The position numbers and the translations under genes were made by a program. From assembly GCA_016927245.1 (NCBI GenBank), contig JAFGNA010000017.1, forward strand, positions 56,448-120,447: a DNA stretch of 64,000 bases. Direction: 5' to 3'. The DNA comes from Candidatus Woesearchaeota archaeon. GTDB lineage: Archaea > Nanobdellota > Nanobdellia > Woesearchaeales > WJKR01. This document shows positions 2,526 through 29,589 of the stretch, in pieces (positions within the stretch are counted from its first letter, which is position 1; each line of letters opens with the position of its first letter). Under the pieces are notes generated by a model that was not told the origin of the DNA, searched no databases, and worked only from the letters and a program-made list of their open reading frames with translations.

Positions 2526-3659
2526 GTGACGACCGATAGCATTATATTTGTTACACCGACACCCGGACAAGTCACCGAGGTGGAGAGTGAGGAACAAACA
2601 AAATTCACGGACGACGAAAGGATCATTGAGATCCCTCCGGAGGATAAACAATCTCCAAGGAAGAGCAAACCCACTTATCCTCAAAACTGGCAAGCATATA
2701 ATGCAGCAAAGACTAATGAAGACACCTACTTTAAACGCCTTCTAAGAGAACTTCTGTTCGTCAGCATAGATGAGAAGCCCTCAAAAAAACCCGGTAGGAA
2801 GGGCTACAGCGACCAGGATAAGATATTCGCTATGTGCATCAAAATATACTACAAGGGCGATCTACGCAAGGCCGAAGGCATCCTAAAAGAGCTCAAGAAC
2901 CTCAAATTCATAGAGAAGGTGCCTTGCTTTAAAAGCATCGACAATTTCTTCAACGACGAAACACTCACCAAAATACTGGATAATCTCATTCTCATCAGCG
3001 CATTACCGCTTGCACAGATAGAAGAGACAGGAGCTATAGACAGCACAGGCTTCAGTACGAGCCAGTTTGAGAGCTGGAACACATTCAAATGGGGGAAGCA
3101 CGAAGGGAAAGAACGCGTCTGGAGAAAAGCCCATGCATGCACCTGCTGCAAGACCAACGCATTCCTCAGTATTAAAGTTACTGAGAAGAACGTCGGTGAC
3201 GCGGCGATGTTTAACGACGTTGTTGGCAACTACACCAAATACTTCAATATGCCTGATTTCGTCGCAGACAAGGCGTATCTGAGCAGAGACATTCTTAAAA
3301 CTATCAAGAAACTCGGCATGAACCCCTACATCCCGTTCAAGAAGAACAGTATCCAAGCAGCAAAAGGTGCTATGATCTGGAGTCAAATGTACGCAGAATT
3401 CATGACGAACCGAGAGGAGTTCATGCAGAAATACCACCGCAGAAGCAATATTGAGACGAGTTTCCACATGCTCAAGATGCGCTTTGGCAACCATTGCATG
3501 ACGAGAACCTTCCATGCACAGACCAACGAGATCAAAATCAAAACACTCTGCTTGAACCTCTGTATTCTCATTCAGGAGATGTTTGAGCGCCAGATAGTGA
3601 TTGATTTCAACGACTGTGTTAATCTGTGTAATAATGAAGAATCCTGTGTAAAATTGTGA
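2526..3659 (+). mobile_element. DDE transposase (IS4/IS5/IS1182-like)
   Basis: 377 aa, GTG start; AIDSTGFS, KAYLSRDIL and NIETSFHMLKMRFG motifs typical of DDE transposases. Confidence 0.8.
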
Positions 3660-7584: not shown

Positions 7585-7654
7585 ACACATCGTTCAAGCA
7601 GCCTTTTCTTACCTTTCAGCAAGTATAAAAGCGCAAACACATTTCCCCAAAAGC

Positions 7655-8974
7655 ATGCACCCAGACCTGCTAGAAGTGTACCGCAAGGCAGAACGCAAAC
7701 CCAACCCCGGAGGCGCAGGGCTAGACGCAGTCTTCACCAAGATCGTACGCCACCACCGAGGACCAGTCAGGACCGCCAACCAGCGGCACCGGGAGAACAA
7801 GCAGCACATCGAGCAAGGCAAAGAACCGCCGCACCGAGAACTCATCACCATCGACGAGCTCACCACCGTCATCGAAGACGAGCCGGCAGAATCACTCTGC
7901 CTCGTCGTCAACCTCTTCGACAAGAAAAAAGTCGTGCGCGGCGGTAATCGCGCAGGAGGCATCCACGCCATCAACGTGACCGGCGCACTGCGGCCGTTCG
8001 CCTTCCTCATGGAAGAGCTCGGAAGCTACCACGACGTCACAACATTCCTCGAAGTAGCCGCGAACCACGACGTCGGCGAGGACGGGCTCCTCTACATAGG
8101 CGACCTCGACCGATTCCTCCGCACCGGCTTGGTGAACGACACGTTCACCATGAGAAGAGAGGTCTACGAGAAAGTCGCAGCCCTCACGAACAAGTACAAG
8201 TTCCTCGTCGACGACCTGGAGACCAGGATTAACCGCTACAACCTGACCAGCGAAGACCTCAAGGACGCGTTCGAGGAGATGCGCGAAGAGGTCAGGAGCA
8301 AAGACCTCCTCGCAAGGATAGACGCCATAGAAGAGCACATCAGGACGAGCAAGTACAACGTCGCGCAGGCAGAGAAAGAAGCGCTCCGGCAAATCTACTT
8401 CGACAACAAGATCGCCTACGACAAGATACTCACCACCAAGGCGTTCAACGACTTCGACCGCACAAGCCAACTATACGGCCCCTACCTCGACCTCGCCCTA
8501 CAGATTCTCGAGCCCCACGAGTTCATCTTCAAAGGAGCGGATCGCACCGACAACACCGGCGACGACAAGTACACCAAGCAGAAACACCGCGTACGTAACC
8601 ACATCAAGGTAGAATACATCATCACCAAAGGCATGCAGAGCCCGTGGGCGGACAACCAATACAACAAGTACATCACCATGACGCTCATCGAGCGAGACCT
8701 CGCCCGTCACCGCAACCCCCACTACATCACCGAGGAGCAGATGCGGAAAGAAGGCGTGCCCGAGGAGAAAATCCCGATCTACCGCAAACTCACCGATAAG
8801 GCATACCAAGCAGTGGTCGGGTTCGAGCCAGATCTCAAAGCGTACAAGGAGCCGGACGCGTCGGGCAAGAGCGAGGCCACCAAGATCATCGAGCAGCTGG
8901 ACCTCACCAAGCGTCAGAGGAAGAAAGGCAAGATATACGATCTCAAAGGCCTCTTCGGGAGGACCGCCCTATGA
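7655..8974 (+). CDS. uncharacterised protein; N-terminal region resembles RelA/SpoT-type HD hydrolase domain
   Basis: NRAGGIHAINV...VAANHDVGEDG...VAALTNKY resembles the RSH pattern R..HP..VA / HDVVEDT / VAALV..VTK. Confidence 0.45.
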   Translation: MHPDLLEVYRKAERKPNPGGAGLDAVFTKIVRHHRGPVRTANQRHRENKQHIEQGKEPPHRELITIDELTTVIEDEPAESLCLVVNLFDKKKVVRGGNRAGGIHAINVTGALRPFAFLMEELGSYHDVTTFLEVAANHDVGEDGLLYIGDLDRFLRTGLVNDTFTMRREVYEKVAALTNKYKFLVDDLETRINRYNLTSEDLKDAFEEMREEVRSKDLLARIDAIEEHIRTSKYNVAQAEKEALRQIYFDNKIAYDKILTTKAFNDFDRTSQLYGPYLDLALQILEPHEFIFKGADRTDNTGDDKYTKQKHRVRNHIKVEYIITKGMQSPWADNQYNKYITMTLIERDLARHRNPHYITEEQMRKEGVPEEKIPIYRKLTDKAYQAVVGFEPDLKAYKEPDASGKSEATKIIEQLDLTKRQRKKGKIYDLKGLFGRTAL

Positions 8975-10434
8975 CCTTCACAGAGGAGACCAGGAAGAAG
9001 TTCGACGCGCTCAGCGTCCCCCAGATCATCCTCACATACGCGCAACTCCACAAGCCGGAAAAACCCGCGTACACCAAGAAGGAGATGATGGAACTCCTCG
9101 ACGTCATCGTCGACAGAAGGGTGCACGAGACGGGCGGCCCACCCGGCATCGACGGCACGATGAAGAAAGCGACAGCAGACCTCATCAAAGCAGCGGCAAG
9201 GTTCCCCGAACAGTTCGCCACGCAGCCCTACACGACCTCACAATACCTGCAGACCAAGCAGATCATCAACCTCTTCGGCAACGAGTTCTTCACCCAACGG
9301 AGCCTGCAACGGTTCTACGACCGGCAGACAGCGCAAGGCATCAACGAGAACTTCAGAGACATCAAGGGCTTCGACACGGAGAAGTTCAAGAAGAAGAAAG
9401 AGAAAGGGGGCAACCCATCAGGATTCGTCGAGAACACCTTCGACTACGACATCGAGCTCCAGCTCTACTTCCTCAGAGGGTTCAACACCGAACGCATCGG
9501 CAACAAGCAACCGATCTGGATAGCGGAAAAGCAAGGAAAGACCAAATCGCTCACGTACAAGCTCAAGAACGAGATAGCAATCCACCTCCCCCTCATCAAA
9601 GAAGGAACCCTCACAACACTTGATCCTTACGTCATCATAGCACACTACTTCAACGACGAAGAAGTATTCAACCAGCCAATCTACAAGGAGATATTCGGGC
9701 AGCTCAGCGAGGAGGACAGGTCATTCATCAAGGAGAAGAAGAAGTGGCGGGACGAAGAGAAAGAAAGGAACAACGAGGAACACCCGAAGCTCTGCAAGCC
9801 GGACGAGCAACGCATGAAAAAGATCTGCGACCACCTCAGGCCCTACATGCAAATGATTCCGAAAGAATCACAGGACGGACTGCTCGAGCAGGCAATACTC
9901 GAGTTCGGAGACATCGACGACATGAGAGGCATCAAGATAGTGCTCCCTGACGACGCGTACTTCAACCAGTACGTCAACCAGCTCATCAGCCACCCGTTGT
10001 TCTACCGTGAGAAACGGCTCGACCAGCACGACGGGACGAAGAAGCGGAAGACGAGCTACCGCGCGTCACACGGCTGGCTGCGATCAGGACGGTTCGAGCG
10101 GCAGGATGAACGATACGAGCTGTACAGCGCGGCGGAGAGGAAGGAGATACACCTCCTCAACATGAGCACCGGCATCATCGACCTGCTCGGCAAGGACAAC
10201 AGCTGGAGCTATCACCAACGGCAGCAACGAGAGAAGTACGGCCACTTCTCCAAGGAGCAGAAAGCCATCGCGGACTTCGCGGAGAAACGCATCTACGCCA
10301 TCGCCGACAGCATCACCGACCCCTTCAAGGAAGTGCTGAAAGAGCGAAAATCAGAGTTCGACACGGAAGAGCGATACTACCACGTGCTCGAGGAACAAGC
10401 AGAACGAGCGCTCATCAAGCTGGCTACTCGTTAA
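8971..10434 (+). CDS. uncharacterised protein; C-terminal region resembles RelA/SpoT (p)ppGpp synthetase domain
   Basis: FGDIDDMRGIKIVLPDD...TSYRASHGWLR...KEIHLLNMSTG...WSYHQRQ resembles D.iGiRii / GYRSlH / vEiQirT / H..YK; 4-nt overlap with previous gene. Confidence 0.45.
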   Translation: MTFTEETRKKFDALSVPQIILTYAQLHKPEKPAYTKKEMMELLDVIVDRRVHETGGPPGIDGTMKKATADLIKAAARFPEQFATQPYTTSQYLQTKQIINLFGNEFFTQRSLQRFYDRQTAQGINENFRDIKGFDTEKFKKKKEKGGNPSGFVENTFDYDIELQLYFLRGFNTERIGNKQPIWIAEKQGKTKSLTYKLKNEIAIHLPLIKEGTLTTLDPYVIIAHYFNDEEVFNQPIYKEIFGQLSEEDRSFIKEKKKWRDEEKERNNEEHPKLCKPDEQRMKKICDHLRPYMQMIPKESQDGLLEQAILEFGDIDDMRGIKIVLPDDAYFNQYVNQLISHPLFYREKRLDQHDGTKKRKTSYRASHGWLRSGRFERQDERYELYSAAERKEIHLLNMSTGIIDLLGKDNSWSYHQRQQREKYGHFSKEQKAIADFAEKRIYAIADSITDPFKEVLKERKSEFDTEERYYHVLEEQAERALIKLATR

Positions 10435-10924
10435 CCACGACCAACCGCCGCGCCTTGGGCACGTAGTTGAGCAGGACGACCCCCTCATCCTTCCCCACGC
10501 GCGGCTGCCGCACCTTGCCGCAGCCGAGCACATCACCACCATGCCTGACGATGACGAACTCGTTGCCCGACCCCTGCCAAGGCAAGTCCTCGCCCTTCAG
10601 CCACGAGCGCCGCTGCCCGCCATCAACCTCCACCACGTTCCTAGAAGCGATCGGGGCGAGGAGCTGCGACCCTTCCATGCTGAGACGGAAACCGTCCGCC
10701 TGCCAAGCGCCGAGATAGAGGCCGATGCTATCGATGCGCAACGACTCATAATCGACTCGCTCGACGTCACGGTTGACCACGTACACCTTGCCCTTGGCGT
10801 TCTGGACGAAGACCGCCCAAGGCAACTCCTCGACACCGAACTGCTCCTGCAAGGCCTGCAACAACCGCTTACGATCCTTGCTGTTCAGGAACCAATTGCC
10901 AGGCGGCAAGCCCATCTCACACAC
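10424..10924 (-). CDS. PUA-domain-like RNA-binding protein
   Basis: GNEFVIVRHGGDVLGCGKVRQPRVGKDEGVVLLNYVPKARRL PUA-like tail; abuts infB. Confidence 0.5.
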   Translation of the reverse strand: MCEMGLPPGNWFLNSKDRKRLLQALQEQFGVEELPWAVFVQNAKGKVYVVNRDVERVDYESLRIDSIGLYLGAWQADGFRLSMEGSQLLAPIASRNVVEVDGGQRRSWLKGEDLPWQGSGNEFVIVRHGGDVLGCGKVRQPRVGKDEGVVLLNYVPKARRLVVVNE

Positions 10925-12674
10925 CCCACACCGGGTTATGCTCCCGCTTGATCTGTGCGACCTCCTTCAAGACCTCCTTCTCATCAGGGGAGAGGTACTC
11001 CACGAGCCGCTTCAACTTACGAAAGTCCTCCTCCGAGACATCACTATACAAGAAGTCCGCCTCCTCCAAGTTGCGGCCGGCAGTCACGTTCGGCAATGAC
11101 ACCGCGACCTGCCGCCCACGCTCAGCCACGGACAACGACTCCTTATCAGCCTGGATGCCCCGGACCAAGGTGAGCGGCCGGCCGTCCCGCTTCATGAGCG
11201 GCATGCCCGTCCGCAACGACCCCTTGAGGACCTCGACGCCAGCGATGCAGGGGTTGGACTGGCGGAACACGCAATGCTGCAGCACCTCTATCTTGCACGG
11301 GCGCACCAAGCTGTCAAGCTGCTTTGCCTCGTCCTCCTTGCGGCGCTCCTGCCGCCACGCCTCGTACTCGTCGATGATGCGATAGATGACGTCATGCACG
11401 ATGACCTTGACGCGATCAGTGCTCTTGGCAGGGGCGACGTTGAACCCGAGGACAGCAGCGTACAACGGGTGCTTCTCAGCGTTGGACTCCGCCTCGCTGA
11501 CGTCTTTCTTGACGACCTGTCCGACGCTCGCACGCCTGATGGGGATGCCGTGCTCCCGGAGCAATGCGATCATGGCCTCGAGGCTGCCGAGAGTGTCCGC
11601 CTTGATGATAACCCCTTCGTGCTCAGTGGCTATCTGGACGTCGTTAATCTGCGCCGCCACTTCGGCAACGGCGTCAGCAACGCCCGCAGGGCTGGTGACG
11701 AGGACCGGCATGCCCGCAGCAGCCCCCTCCAGGTCCGGCGCCGATATCTTGACGCCCGTGGCGGCGGCTGCTTCCTTGACGCTGCGGAACTTGCCCTTCC
11801 GGTCGCGCATCTCCGTGTTCGGCCACGGCTCGAACAACGCCCGCGCCTTCGCCTGCCTCGGCTCGTCCAAGGTGCCGTACACGAACGTGTCGCCCACACG
11901 CATCCTGCCGTCATAGAGGATGACATCAATGGTCTTCCCCAACCCCTTGTCCTCCTTGACCTCGAGGATGACGCCCTTGCCCGGGCCGCTGACATCAAAG
12001 GACAACGACTGCTCCAAGTACCGTTGCGCGAGCCCCGAGATGACGAGGAGGAGCTCCTGCAGGCCGAGGCCTGTCTTCGCAGAGCACGGCACGATGGCGA
12101 CCTGTTTGGTGAAGTCATCCACGCGGTCGAAGCGCTCCGCCTGCAACGAGAACCGCTCGTACAGGACGCCGACGAGCCCGTACAACTTGGTGTCCACGTC
12201 GCGAGCGACGTGCTCCGCCTGCGCCGCCAACTGGCTGACGAGGGGCCCGTCCTTGTTGGAGAACCCGGGGATGAGGTCGAGCTTGTTGGCAGCGACGATG
12301 AACGGCGTCCTGGTGTTCTTGAGGATCTCGACTGACTCGAGGGTCTGCGGCTTGCAACCCTCATTGATGTCAACGACGAGGATGGCGATGTCCGCGAGCG
12401 AACCGCCCCTGCTCCTGAGCGAGGTGAACGCCGCGTGCCCGGGCGTGTCGATGAAGAGGAGTCCGGGGATGGTGAGGTGGAGCTTGGTCTCGTCGAGGAG
12501 GCTGCCGAGCCGCTGCTTGATGGTCTCTGCGGGGATGATAGAGGCGCCGATGGCTTGGGTGATGGCGCCGGCCTCGCCCGCGACGACGTCGCTGCCCCTG
12601 ATGGCGTCCAGGATGCTTGACTTCCCGTGGTCGACATGGCCCAGGACCGTGACGATAGGGCTGCGGATGCTCAT
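10917..12674 (-). CDS. infB: translation initiation factor aIF5B
   Basis: VTVLGHVDHGKSSILD, DTPGHAAFTSLRSRG, NKLD; start MSIRSPIVTV at 12674. Confidence 0.95.
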   Translation of the reverse strand: MSIRSPIVTVLGHVDHGKSSILDAIRGSDVVAGEAGAITQAIGASIIPAETIKQRLGSLLDETKLHLTIPGLLFIDTPGHAAFTSLRSRGGSLADIAILVVDINEGCKPQTLESVEILKNTRTPFIVAANKLDLIPGFSNKDGPLVSQLAAQAEHVARDVDTKLYGLVGVLYERFSLQAERFDRVDDFTKQVAIVPCSAKTGLGLQELLLVISGLAQRYLEQSLSFDVSGPGKGVILEVKEDKGLGKTIDVILYDGRMRVGDTFVYGTLDEPRQAKARALFEPWPNTEMRDRKGKFRSVKEAAAATGVKISAPDLEGAAAGMPVLVTSPAGVADAVAEVAAQINDVQIATEHEGVIIKADTLGSLEAMIALLREHGIPIRRASVGQVVKKDVSEAESNAEKHPLYAAVLGFNVAPAKSTDRVKVIVHDVIYRIIDEYEAWRQERRKEDEAKQLDSLVRPCKIEVLQHCVFRQSNPCIAGVEVLKGSLRTGMPLMKRDGRPLTLVRGIQADKESLSVAERGRQVAVSLPNVTAGRNLEEADFLYSDVSEEDFRKLKRLVEYLSPDEKEVLKEVAQIKREHNPVWGV

Positions 12675-12755
12675 AGAGGAGGGTGAGGACACCTCCTTTT
12701 TAAAGGTTCTTTTTGGGGGAACACTATTTAAACGAGCGGTGCTTGCCCGCACGCC

Positions 12756-13802
12756 ATGCGCACCGTCACCGAAGGAAGAGCGGTCATCGCAGTCCCTGAC
12801 GAGGAAAACCTGACCAAGAAGGCGGACGTGTTCTACAACCCCGCCATGAAGAGCAACAGGGACTTGAGCATCCTCATCCTCCTCGCGAGGGGGAAAGAAG
12901 GGCTGCGCGTGTGCGACCCCTTGGCAGGGAGCGGCGTCCGCTCCTTGCGGTTCCTGAAGGAGTTGCCAAGAGGCATGATCAGCAACCTCGCCGTGAACGA
13001 CGCGAAGCAAGGATTCCCTGACCTATTCGGGGAGAACGCCGCGCGCTCACGAGCATCGCTGGAGCGCGTGGCCGTCACGGCGAGGGAGGCGAGCAAGCTC
13101 CTCCTCGACTGCGAGGCGCAGGACTACATCGACATCGACCCGTTCGGCAGCCCGAACGAGTTCCTCGACGCCGCGTGCAAGCGGTGCAGGCGCGGAGGCC
13201 TCCTCGCAGTGACCGCGACGGACACCGCGCCGCTGTGCGGCACCTATCCCCGCGCGTGCAAGCGGAAGTACTGGGCAATCCCTAGGAGGGACCACCTCAT
13301 GCACGAGTACGGCCTGCGCATCCTCATCAGGAAGTGCCAGCTCATCGCCGCGCAGTACGGCCGCGCGCTCACGCCCTTGTTCAGCTACAGCAAGGACCAC
13401 TACTTCCGCGTGTTCTTCGCGGTTGAGGAGGGAAAGAGCAGGGTCGACGCCTTGCTCGACCAACATGCCATGGTGGATGGCTACGGCCCGTTATGGCGAG
13501 GACCGCTGTGGGACGTCCCCTTGGTCGAGCGGATGCTCTCCCTCGCACGGGAGCGGTACCCAGACCAAGAGCGGTTCCTCGCGCTCATCAACGAGGAGGC
13601 GGCCGCGCCCTCACTAGGGTTCCACGACGTGCACGTCTTGTGCAAAGGGCTCGGGTGTGAGCCGCCGAGGCACGACGCCATCATGGCCTGCCTCGAGGAG
13701 AAAGGCATCAGGGCTGCGAGGACGCACTTCTCCCCCACGGGAATCAGGGCGGCGTGCGATGAGGAGGCCGTGCAGGAAGCCATCAAGGAGGCGGCGCGGT
13801 GA
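12756..13802 (+). CDS. trm1: tRNA (guanine(26)-N2)-dimethyltransferase
   Basis: VFYNPAMKSNRDLSILIL, DPFGSPNEFLDAA, ATDTAPLCG. Confidence 0.93.
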   Translation: MRTVTEGRAVIAVPDEENLTKKADVFYNPAMKSNRDLSILILLARGKEGLRVCDPLAGSGVRSLRFLKELPRGMISNLAVNDAKQGFPDLFGENAARSRASLERVAVTAREASKLLLDCEAQDYIDIDPFGSPNEFLDAACKRCRRGGLLAVTATDTAPLCGTYPRACKRKYWAIPRRDHLMHEYGLRILIRKCQLIAAQYGRALTPLFSYSKDHYFRVFFAVEEGKSRVDALLDQHAMVDGYGPLWRGPLWDVPLVERMLSLARERYPDQERFLALINEEAAAPSLGFHDVHVLCKGLGCEPPRHDAIMACLEEKGIRAARTHFSPTGIRAACDEEAVQEAIKEAAR

Positions 13803-29047: not shown

Positions 29048-29058
29048 CGTGGCGTTCC

Positions 29059-29589
29059 TCAGTAGAAGATGGCGACGACTTTGCCGAGTATCTGCTCGGG
29101 GCGGACTTTGCCGGGGTCGCTCACGGGGTTGTTGTCCCCTTTGAGGACGAAGTACAGTCCTTGTTCGTCTTGGTCTATGTGGGTGATGCGGTGGATGATG
29201 ATGTCGTCTCCTCGTCGGTAGCTGACGATGTCGCCTATTTGGAGCGTTTCTGGGGGTACTCGTATCCTGACCGTGTTGGCGCCGACGTCGAACACGGGGT
29301 CCATGCTGTTGGTGTCGGTGAACGTGCTCCAGGAGCTGTCTGCCAGGTCGAGGTTGATGAGCCAGTCATTCTCGTCTTGGTCTTGGAGCGAGACGTACAC
29401 GCCGTTCTTGTACACTTTGATCTGGTCTTCGGTGACGGTGTCTCCTGGTGAGTGCCGTTCTTCGGGTCGTTGTGGTCCTGTTGGGAGTTCTAGCGCTGGT
29501 GAGAGCGCTGGGTAGAGGATGAGGGCGCTGATGGCGCCGAGGAGGAAGATGCAGCTGATGGCGGTGATGAGGGGTATGGCTTCTCTCAT
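29059..29589 (-). CDS. signal peptidase I (S26), archaeal-type
   Basis: TNSMDPVFD (Ser) and DIIIHRI (His); KGDNNPVSDPGKVRPEQILGKV. Confidence 0.9.
   Translation of the reverse strand: MREAIPLITAISCIFLLGAISALILYPALSPALELPTGPQRPEERHSPGDTVTEDQIKVYKNGVYVSLQDQDENDWLINLDLADSSWSTFTDTNSMDPVFDVGANTVRIRVPPETLQIGDIVSYRRGDDIIIHRITHIDQDEQGLYFVLKGDNNPVSDPGKVRPEQILGKVVAIFY

What the first reader, a model, noticed from the sequence alone, without database searches (positions are those of the whole stretch)
7655..10434. Candidate split RelA/SpoT-like system in an archaeon
Seen: two coupled genes (ATGA overlap). The first has NRAGGIHAINV...ANHDVGEDG...VAALTNKY, like the RSH HD hydrolase (R, H, HD-ED). The second has FGDIDDMRGIKIVLPDD...SYRASHGW...EIHLLNMSTG...WSYHQRQ, like the RSH synthetase core. 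Established: long RSH enzymes carry HD and synthetase domains on one polypeptide, and (p)ppGpp signalling is rare or absent in most archaea. Inference: the two activities are split across an operon with large unfamiliar extensions, just downstream of grpE-dnaK-dnaJ. Several canonical synthetase residues are not obvious, so the product may differ or activity may be lost.
Basis: partly seen in the sequence, partly recalled or inferred. Interest (0 to 1): 0.75.

Follow-up and report, generated by a model that had tools for sequence, protein, structure and literature searches.

The report
Split RelA/SpoT-like gene pair, archaeon
Two overlapping genes in a tiny symbiont-type archaeon look like a stress-alarm enzyme of bacteria (RelA/SpoT) cut into its 'eraser' and 'writer' halves and changed almost beyond recognition, and related archaea keep similar pairs at the same place beside a translation-initiation gene, which hints at an undescribed way of throttling protein synthesis.

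Summary
The two genes exist as described: 439 aa and 487 aa, ATGA overlap, archaeal TATA box 31 nt before the first ATG. Neither matches Pfam, NCBIfam, PADLOC or PDB sequences, so the RSH assignment is not trivial. It is nevertheless well supported for gene 2 and moderately for gene 1. (1) A species of the same genus has both genes at the same locus; metal, acceptor and donor-site residues of gene 2 recur although the proteins are only ~30% identical. (2) In the same archaeal order (Woesearchaeota), Pfam-positive stand-alone RelA_SpoT genes, often preceded by an HD gene, sit at the same place, next to a PUA gene and aIF5B: 6 of 15 short RelA_SpoT genes found blind to location (P about 1e-12). 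(3) D317, Y363, H367 and E392 are invariant in an alignment with nine such relatives. (4) A low-confidence AlphaFold model built on that family alignment retrieves only alarmone synthetases as its 42 best PDB hits; without the relatives no fold is obtained. Gene 1 keeps HD-x-x-ED and K-x-x-D-x-x-x-N but lacks a clear first metal His. Activity is unproven; donor-site Arg are Lys. Best reading: a fast-evolving bipartite RSH module acting on translation. Main rival: toxin-antitoxin.

The parts
7624..7631 (+). TATAAAAG box 31 nt upstream of the gene 1 ATG (archaeal leaderless-type promoter)
   Evidence: sequence; inference as to function
7655..8974 (+). Gene 1, 439 aa, divergent RSH-type HD (hydrolase-like) protein
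   Evidence: no Pfam/NCBIfam/PDB hit
7949..7966 (+). R99-A-G-G-I-H104, candidate R and first metal His of the HD domain (uncertain)
   Evidence: sequence; spacing differs from canonical RSH
8066..8083 (+). H138-D139-x-x-E142-D143, HD/ED motif
8531..8554 (+). K293-x-x-D296-x-x-x-N300, third HD motif (RSH KLADRLHN); K, D and N kept in ortholog
8971..8974 (+). ATGA start/stop overlap
8971..10434 (+). Gene 2, 487 aa, divergent stand-alone RSH synthetase-like (pyrophosphotransferase) protein
9529..9561 (+). K187-Q-G-K190-T-K-S193-L-T-Y-K197, candidate pyrophosphate-donor (ATP) motif, matching FaRel2 R64-x-K66-x3-S70-x3-K74
   Evidence: conserved in ortholog; FaRel2 residues from PMC11782079; assignment is inference
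9919..9936 (+). D317-M-R-G320-I-K322, Mg-binding Asp strand (FaRel2 D90-x-x-G93-x-R95)
10048..10071 (+). K360-T-S-Y363-R-A-S-H367, acceptor loop (G-loop Tyr, FaRel2 Y128)
10144..10152 (+). E392-I-H394, catalytic Glu (FaRel2 E145-x-Q147)
10424..10924 (-). PUA-domain protein (Pfam Methyltranf_PUA), near-universal convergent neighbour of the module in this order
10917..13010 (-). aIF5B (archaeal IF2 homologue); conserved neighbour (real start probably about 100 codons internal)

Best explanation
The pair is a bipartite, fast-evolving member of the RelA/SpoT homologue (RSH) superfamily. Gene 2 is a stand-alone SYNTH-type pyrophosphotransferase that moves pyrophosphate from ATP (or a related donor) to the 3' end of a purine nucleotide or of tRNA. 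Gene 1 is a stand-alone HD-type hydrolase with a long insertion between its HD/ED and D..N motifs that removes the product in trans. Both are translated from one leaderless bicistronic transcript. The fixed position beside a PUA RNA-binding gene and aIF5B suggests that the output acts on translation. Shown: gene structure, orthologous locus in a second species, conservation of active-site-type residues, recurrence of HD and SYNTH genes at this locus across the order, and an RSH-like model when relatives are supplied. Inferred: catalysis, substrates, the translation role and the promoter.
For: Orthologous pair and neighbours (PUA, aIF5B, Trm1) in a second species of the genus, 27-30% identical for the pair against 58-76% for the neighbours. 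Pfam-positive RelA_SpoT genes at the same PUA locus: L031, L032, L033, L036 (with HD partner), L119 (HD partner, then SYNTH at 38 bits), L117 (55 bits); sub-threshold L038, L046. Six of 15 short RelA_SpoT genes found blind to location lie beside the single PUA gene, P about 1e-12. SYNTH-profile hits within three genes on the 3' side of PUA in 11 of 58 loci, on the 5' side in none. D317, Y363, H367, E392 invariant in 10-11 sequences. Models built without the window's genus rank gene 2 directly after known RSHs among 2353-2793 ORFs in most sets, with the catalytic motif aligned (E 0.0013-0.14). Family-based AlphaFold model: top 42 PDB hits all alarmone synthetases, FaRel2 included. HD proteins at the locus share HD..E[DE] + K..D...N with gaps of 85-270 residues; the window's is 155.
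Against: No database hit for either protein. HHalign of the two-sequence profiles against canonical RSH domains is not significant. AlphaFold with only the two orthologs gives no fold (pLDDT 38, no RSH hit), so the positive model (pLDDT 49, best Foldseek E 0.009) leans on relatives in its alignment. Gene 1's HD/ED region is not recognised by the family HD profile (score -1.5) and only its K..D...N part scores (8.3 bits, E 0.29). The first metal His is uncertain. Two donor Arg are Lys and E-x-Q is E-x-H. The ortholog of gene 1 is cut off by its contig end before the HD motif.
Confidence: 0.6

Rival explanations
1. A toxin-antitoxin or anti-virus module of the FaRel/ATfaRel kind: gene 2 is a toxSAS that pyrophosphorylates tRNA CCA ends or makes toxic (pp)pApp, and gene 1 is the hydrolase antitoxin.
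For: Upstream HD gene overlapping a downstream SYNTH gene is an antitoxin-toxin layout; SAH enzymes such as ATfaRel and PaSpo reverse FaRel2 action on tRNA (PMC11559606) and often accompany toxic synthetases (PMC9765508 abstract). The pair diverges far faster than its neighbours (27-30% against 58-76%), as in genetic conflict. In L117/L118 the HD partners are 84% but the SYNTHs 37% identical.
Against: Fixed chromosomal position beside PUA/aIF5B across families and vertical retention within the genus, unlike mobile TA modules. SYNTH genes occur at the locus without an apparent HD partner (L107-L109, L133-L136). PADLOC has no hit for the window pair.
Confidence: 0.3
2. RSH-derived pseudoenzymes: the fold is kept but catalysis is lost, and the pair serves as nucleotide- or RNA-binding regulators of translation.
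For: Arg to Lys at both adenine-coordinating positions, Q to H in E-x-Q, uncertain first metal His in the HD protein. Some other loci have lost residues too, for example SYNTHs without Y/H or Glu (L046, L073).
Against: D317, Y363, H367, E392 and S193/K197 survive in two orthologs only ~30% identical, which argues for continuing selection on the active site.
Confidence: 0.22
3. The resemblance is coincidental: two orphan proteins with short motifs that look like RSH by chance.
For: No significant database, HHalign or unbiased structural match.
Against: Both halves of RSH look-alikes in one operon, at the locus where Pfam-positive RSH domains recur in the order, with motif statistics far beyond shuffles.
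Confidence: 0.08

Closest known systems
Long bifunctional RSH (Rel/SpoT)
   Same: HD hydrolase-like and SYNTH-like parts, with the same key residues in the same order (HD..ED, K..D...N; D..G.K, Y...H, E.H)
   Different: Two polypeptides, no TGS/ACT region, insertions of ~90 residues in HD and ~110 in SYNTH, no detectable Pfam similarity; canonical long RSHs are separate genes in related genomes
toxSAS/SAH toxin-antitoxin pairs (FaRel with ATfaRel; also FaRel2, PhRel, CapRel)
   Same: Stand-alone SYNTH with an adjacent HD hydrolase; D90/G93/Y128/E145/S70/K74 of FaRel2 have counterparts; FaRel2 is among the Foldseek hits
   Different: Larger proteins, fixed locus beside aIF5B, K in place of R64 and R95, H in place of Q147; no toxicity data
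Small alarmone synthetases RelP/RelQ (SAS2/SAS1)
   Same: Best Foldseek hits of the family-based model (5ded, 6fgk, 3l9d)
   Different: ~200 aa, strongly Pfam-positive, usually not paired with an HD gene
rickRel/rickSpo and other separately encoded SYNTH and HD proteins (Atkinson et al. 2011, PMC3153485)
   Same: Synthetase and hydrolase on separate polypeptides
   Different: Bacterial; not an overlapping operon beside aIF5B; recognisable by sequence
RelA/SpoT reported in DPANN archaea (PMC8407392)
   Same: Same archaeal group
   Different: Reported as RelA/SpoT acquired from bacteria; the split divergent pair and its locus were not described in the passages read

Membership tests
RSH synthetase domain (PF04607, RelA_SpoT) | Match to the family model above its cut-off | tested here: not met
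   No Pfam or NCBIfam match at E up to 10; several genes at the same locus in related genomes do match
RSH synthetase domain (PF04607, RelA_SpoT) | Mg-binding Asp, acceptor Tyr (and His +4), catalytic Glu in the right order and spacing | tested here: met
   D317, Y363, H367, E392 invariant with relatives; nearly so with 18 sequences
RSH synthetase domain (PF04607, RelA_SpoT) | Donor-site Arg/Lys (FaRel2 R64, K66, R95) and Gln147 | tested here: inconclusive
   K187, K190, S193, K197 may fill the donor site; R95 is K322, Q147 is H394
RSH synthetase domain (PF04607, RelA_SpoT) | SYNTH fold | tested here: inconclusive
   Family-alignment model (pLDDT 49) retrieves only alarmone synthetases as top 42 hits; two-sequence model does not fold
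RSH hydrolase domain (HD_4, PF13328) | Match to the family model | tested here: not met
   the only HD_4 hit in the genome is a different gene on contig C13
RSH hydrolase domain (HD_4, PF13328) | H ... HD..ED ... D metal and catalytic residues | tested here: inconclusive
   HD..ED (138-143) and K..D...N (293-300) present; first His unclear (H104 or lost)
Long RSH | HD and SYNTH on one chain with C-terminal TGS/ACT | tested here: not met
   Two ORFs, no C-terminal region, no TGS/ACT match
toxSAS toxin-antitoxin system | SYNTH protein toxic alone, neutralised by its partner | not testable with these tools
   Layout compatible; no activity data
RSH superfamily | Enzymatic pyrophosphate transfer / removal | not testable with these tools
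   Needs purified proteins

The most novel reading that the evidence does not exclude
An ancestral, order-wide archaeal system in which an RSH split into two independently and very rapidly evolving enzymes is fixed beside aIF5B and a PUA protein and brakes translation by pyrophosphorylating a non-canonical acceptor (for example tRNA or another RNA), most members being invisible to current family models.
Probability: 0.3. Interest if true: 0.82.

Novelty: new variant of a known kind. Interest (0 to 1): 0.64.

Why it matters
RSH enzymes are the hub of the bacterial stringent response, and archaeal alarmone signalling remains little explored. If the reading is right, a large order of reduced-genome, probably host-dependent archaea carries a second, split and fast-evolving RSH layer at a fixed translation-gene locus. 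The neighbour aIF5B is the homologue of IF2, a ppGpp-sensitive factor in bacteria (PMC7010297, title and abstract). It would make the question of whether and how archaea use pyrophosphorylated nucleotides or tRNAs testable with two small proteins, and would show that surveys based on family models undercount these enzymes.

Tried and rejected
Pfam, NCBIfam, PADLOC and PDB-sequence searches of the pair, and a phage-collection search of gene 2: nothing. HHalign of two-sequence profiles against canonical HD and SYNTH domains: not significant. AlphaFold on window + ortholog only: no fold, no RSH hit. First genome-contig scan: none; second found only the known sister (Ca. Woesearchaeota archaeon Bin_423). 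Viral contig scans: the server did not answer. Considered and rejected: dependence on the grpE-dnaK-dnaJ cluster (not seen at related loci, separate TATA box); that the window's genome is just one of those with a canonical RSH (its genome has no PF04607 match); recent acquisition (GC 0.57/0.55 and GC3 close to the window's; same locus in the sister species).

Full report
What is there. Gene 1 (7655-8974, 439 aa) and gene 2 (8971-10434, 487 aa) overlap by ATGA; a TATAAAAG box lies 31 nt before the first ATG, 0.35 kb after dnaJ. The 1.11-Mb, 24-contig genome is archaeal (aIF5B and Trm1 downstream); the sister species found in a public collection is titled Candidatus Woesearchaeota archaeon.

Direct homology is weak. 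Neither protein matches Pfam, NCBIfam, PADLOC or PDB sequences. Only one other genome has detectable homologs, a second species of the same genus. There the same two genes precede the same PUA gene, aIF5B and Trm1. The pair is 27-30% identical between the two species, while PUA is 69%, aIF5B 76% and Trm1 58%, so the pair evolves far faster than its neighbours. The ortholog of gene 1 is cut by its contig end, so its HD/ED motif could not be compared.

The locus gives the strongest evidence. RelA_SpoT (PF04607) genes occur in 25 of 61 sampled relatives; about 18 of these are canonical long RSHs and none was found in the window's own genus. Of the 15 shorter RelA_SpoT genes that I fetched, six (L031, L032, L033, L036, L038, L039) lie beside the single-copy PUA gene that also flanks the window pair; under random placement P is about 1e-12 to 1e-13. 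HD_4 hits found independently also fall there: L036, L044, L045, L046, L052, L053. The commonest arrangement is HD, then SYNTH, then convergent PUA, as in the window: L113/L046 (RelA_SpoT below cut-off), L119 (HD 492 aa, SYNTH 466 aa with 38 Pfam bits, overlapping), L117, L121, L126, L127. The PUA gene is near-universal (58 of 61 genomes; 268 of 292). In the location-unbiased set of 58 PUA loci, SYNTH-profile hits lie on its 3' side in 11 and on its 5' side in none. The profile was trained partly on some of these, but Pfam alone gives the location-blind result above.

Active-site residues. An unguided alignment of gene 2 with its ortholog and eight or nine divergent synthetases leaves D317, Y363, H367 and E392 invariant; with 18 sequences D317 and E392 remain invariant and H367 is 17 of 18. 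In FaRel2 the Mg-binding residue is D90, the acceptor base is held by Y128, and the donor site uses R64, K66, S70, K74, R77, R95, E145 and Q147 (PMC11782079). In the window R95 is K322 and Q147 is H394; K187/K190, S193 and K197, conserved in the ortholog, are my candidates for R64/K66, S70 and K74. The region between the donor helix and the Asp strand carries an insertion of about 110 residues. For gene 1, HD proteins of the locus share HD..E[DE] and K..D...N separated by 85-270 residues; the window's gap is 155, more than in the canonical RSHs of the order. H104 or no residue may replace the first metal His.

Statistics and models. The strict synthetase motif is absent from 40,000 shuffles of the two orthologs; the loose motif finds only RSH-type ORFs or this pair among 374, apart from one ORF at the equivalent locus of another genome. 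Profiles built without the window's genus place gene 2 directly after known RSH proteins in most sets (E 0.0013 to 0.14 in 2353-2793 ORFs, catalytic motif aligned; in two profile variants it ranked lower or was not listed). The HD profile supports only the C-terminal motif of gene 1. HHalign was not significant. AlphaFold with two sequences failed (pLDDT 38, unrelated hits). With relatives (18 sequences in all) the SYNTH region of gene 2 (residues 141-443) gives pLDDT 49, strands at the right motifs, and 42 alarmone synthetases as its 42 best PDB hits, best E 0.0086. This second model is not independent of the assumption of kinship.

Mechanism. The simplest account is a writer/eraser pair acting in trans: gene 2 transfers pyrophosphate and gene 1 removes it. 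Acceptor, donor and signal are unknown. Position beside aIF5B, homologue of ppGpp-sensitive IF2 (PMC7010297), and beside an RNA-binding PUA protein suggests translation as the target; this is inference. FaRel2 and ATfaRel show that RSH-type enzymes can write and erase a mark on tRNA (PMC11559606), so both an alarmone and a tRNA substrate are open. Rapid divergence, and 37% SYNTH against 84% HD identity between L117 and L118 (L118's SYNTH may be broken), fit a conflict role; the fixed locus and SYNTH-only loci fit it less well.

Comparison with what is known. Atkinson et al. (PMC3153485) found few RSHs in archaea and no long ones; a 2021 survey reported RelA/SpoT in 41.7% of Woesearchaeota (PMC8407392). 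I found no description of a split pair at the PUA-aIF5B locus in the papers searched, which cover open-licence texts only. I call it a new variant of a known kind, with the RSH membership of gene 2 likely, that of gene 1 plausible, and activity untested.

Noticed in passing
G000 contig C13:22457-22837 (L041:3296-3856, -): The window's genome has a second, canonical Mesh1-like stand-alone HD hydrolase (HD_4, 54 bits) although it has no detectable RelA_SpoT synthetase other than gene 2.
   Followed up: partly
L117 and L118 (G275, G216, same genus): HD partners are 84% identical but the adjacent SYNTH genes only 37%, as if the synthetase were replaced or hyper-evolving; the L118 SYNTH ORF is short and may be broken.
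   Followed up: partly
L026, L027, L028, L029: A separate group of ~350-aa stand-alone RelA_SpoT proteins with an 'RLKRxPSIxxKL'-like motif, not at the PUA locus and without an HD neighbour.
   Followed up: no
window 10424-10924: Small PUA-domain protein (Methyltranf_PUA/RsmF-like) convergent to the pair, present in 268 of 292 genomes of the order, usually beside aIF5B; its own role is unclear.
   Followed up: partly
window 2526-3659: Transposase-like ORF (DDE-type by eye) just upstream of grpE, close to the module.
   Followed up: no
window 10917-13010: The aIF5B ORF as listed has about 100 extra N-terminal codons relative to its ortholog; the real start is probably internal.
   Followed up: no
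window 29056-29148: ARAGORN reports a tRNA with an unassigned two-base anticodon call (tRNA-???), perhaps an unusual or intron-bearing tRNA.
   Followed up: no
order-wide, G-handles: Canonical long RSHs (590-755 aa) are frequent in this archaeal order, in some genomes alongside the divergent split pair (G014, G039, G050).
   Followed up: yes
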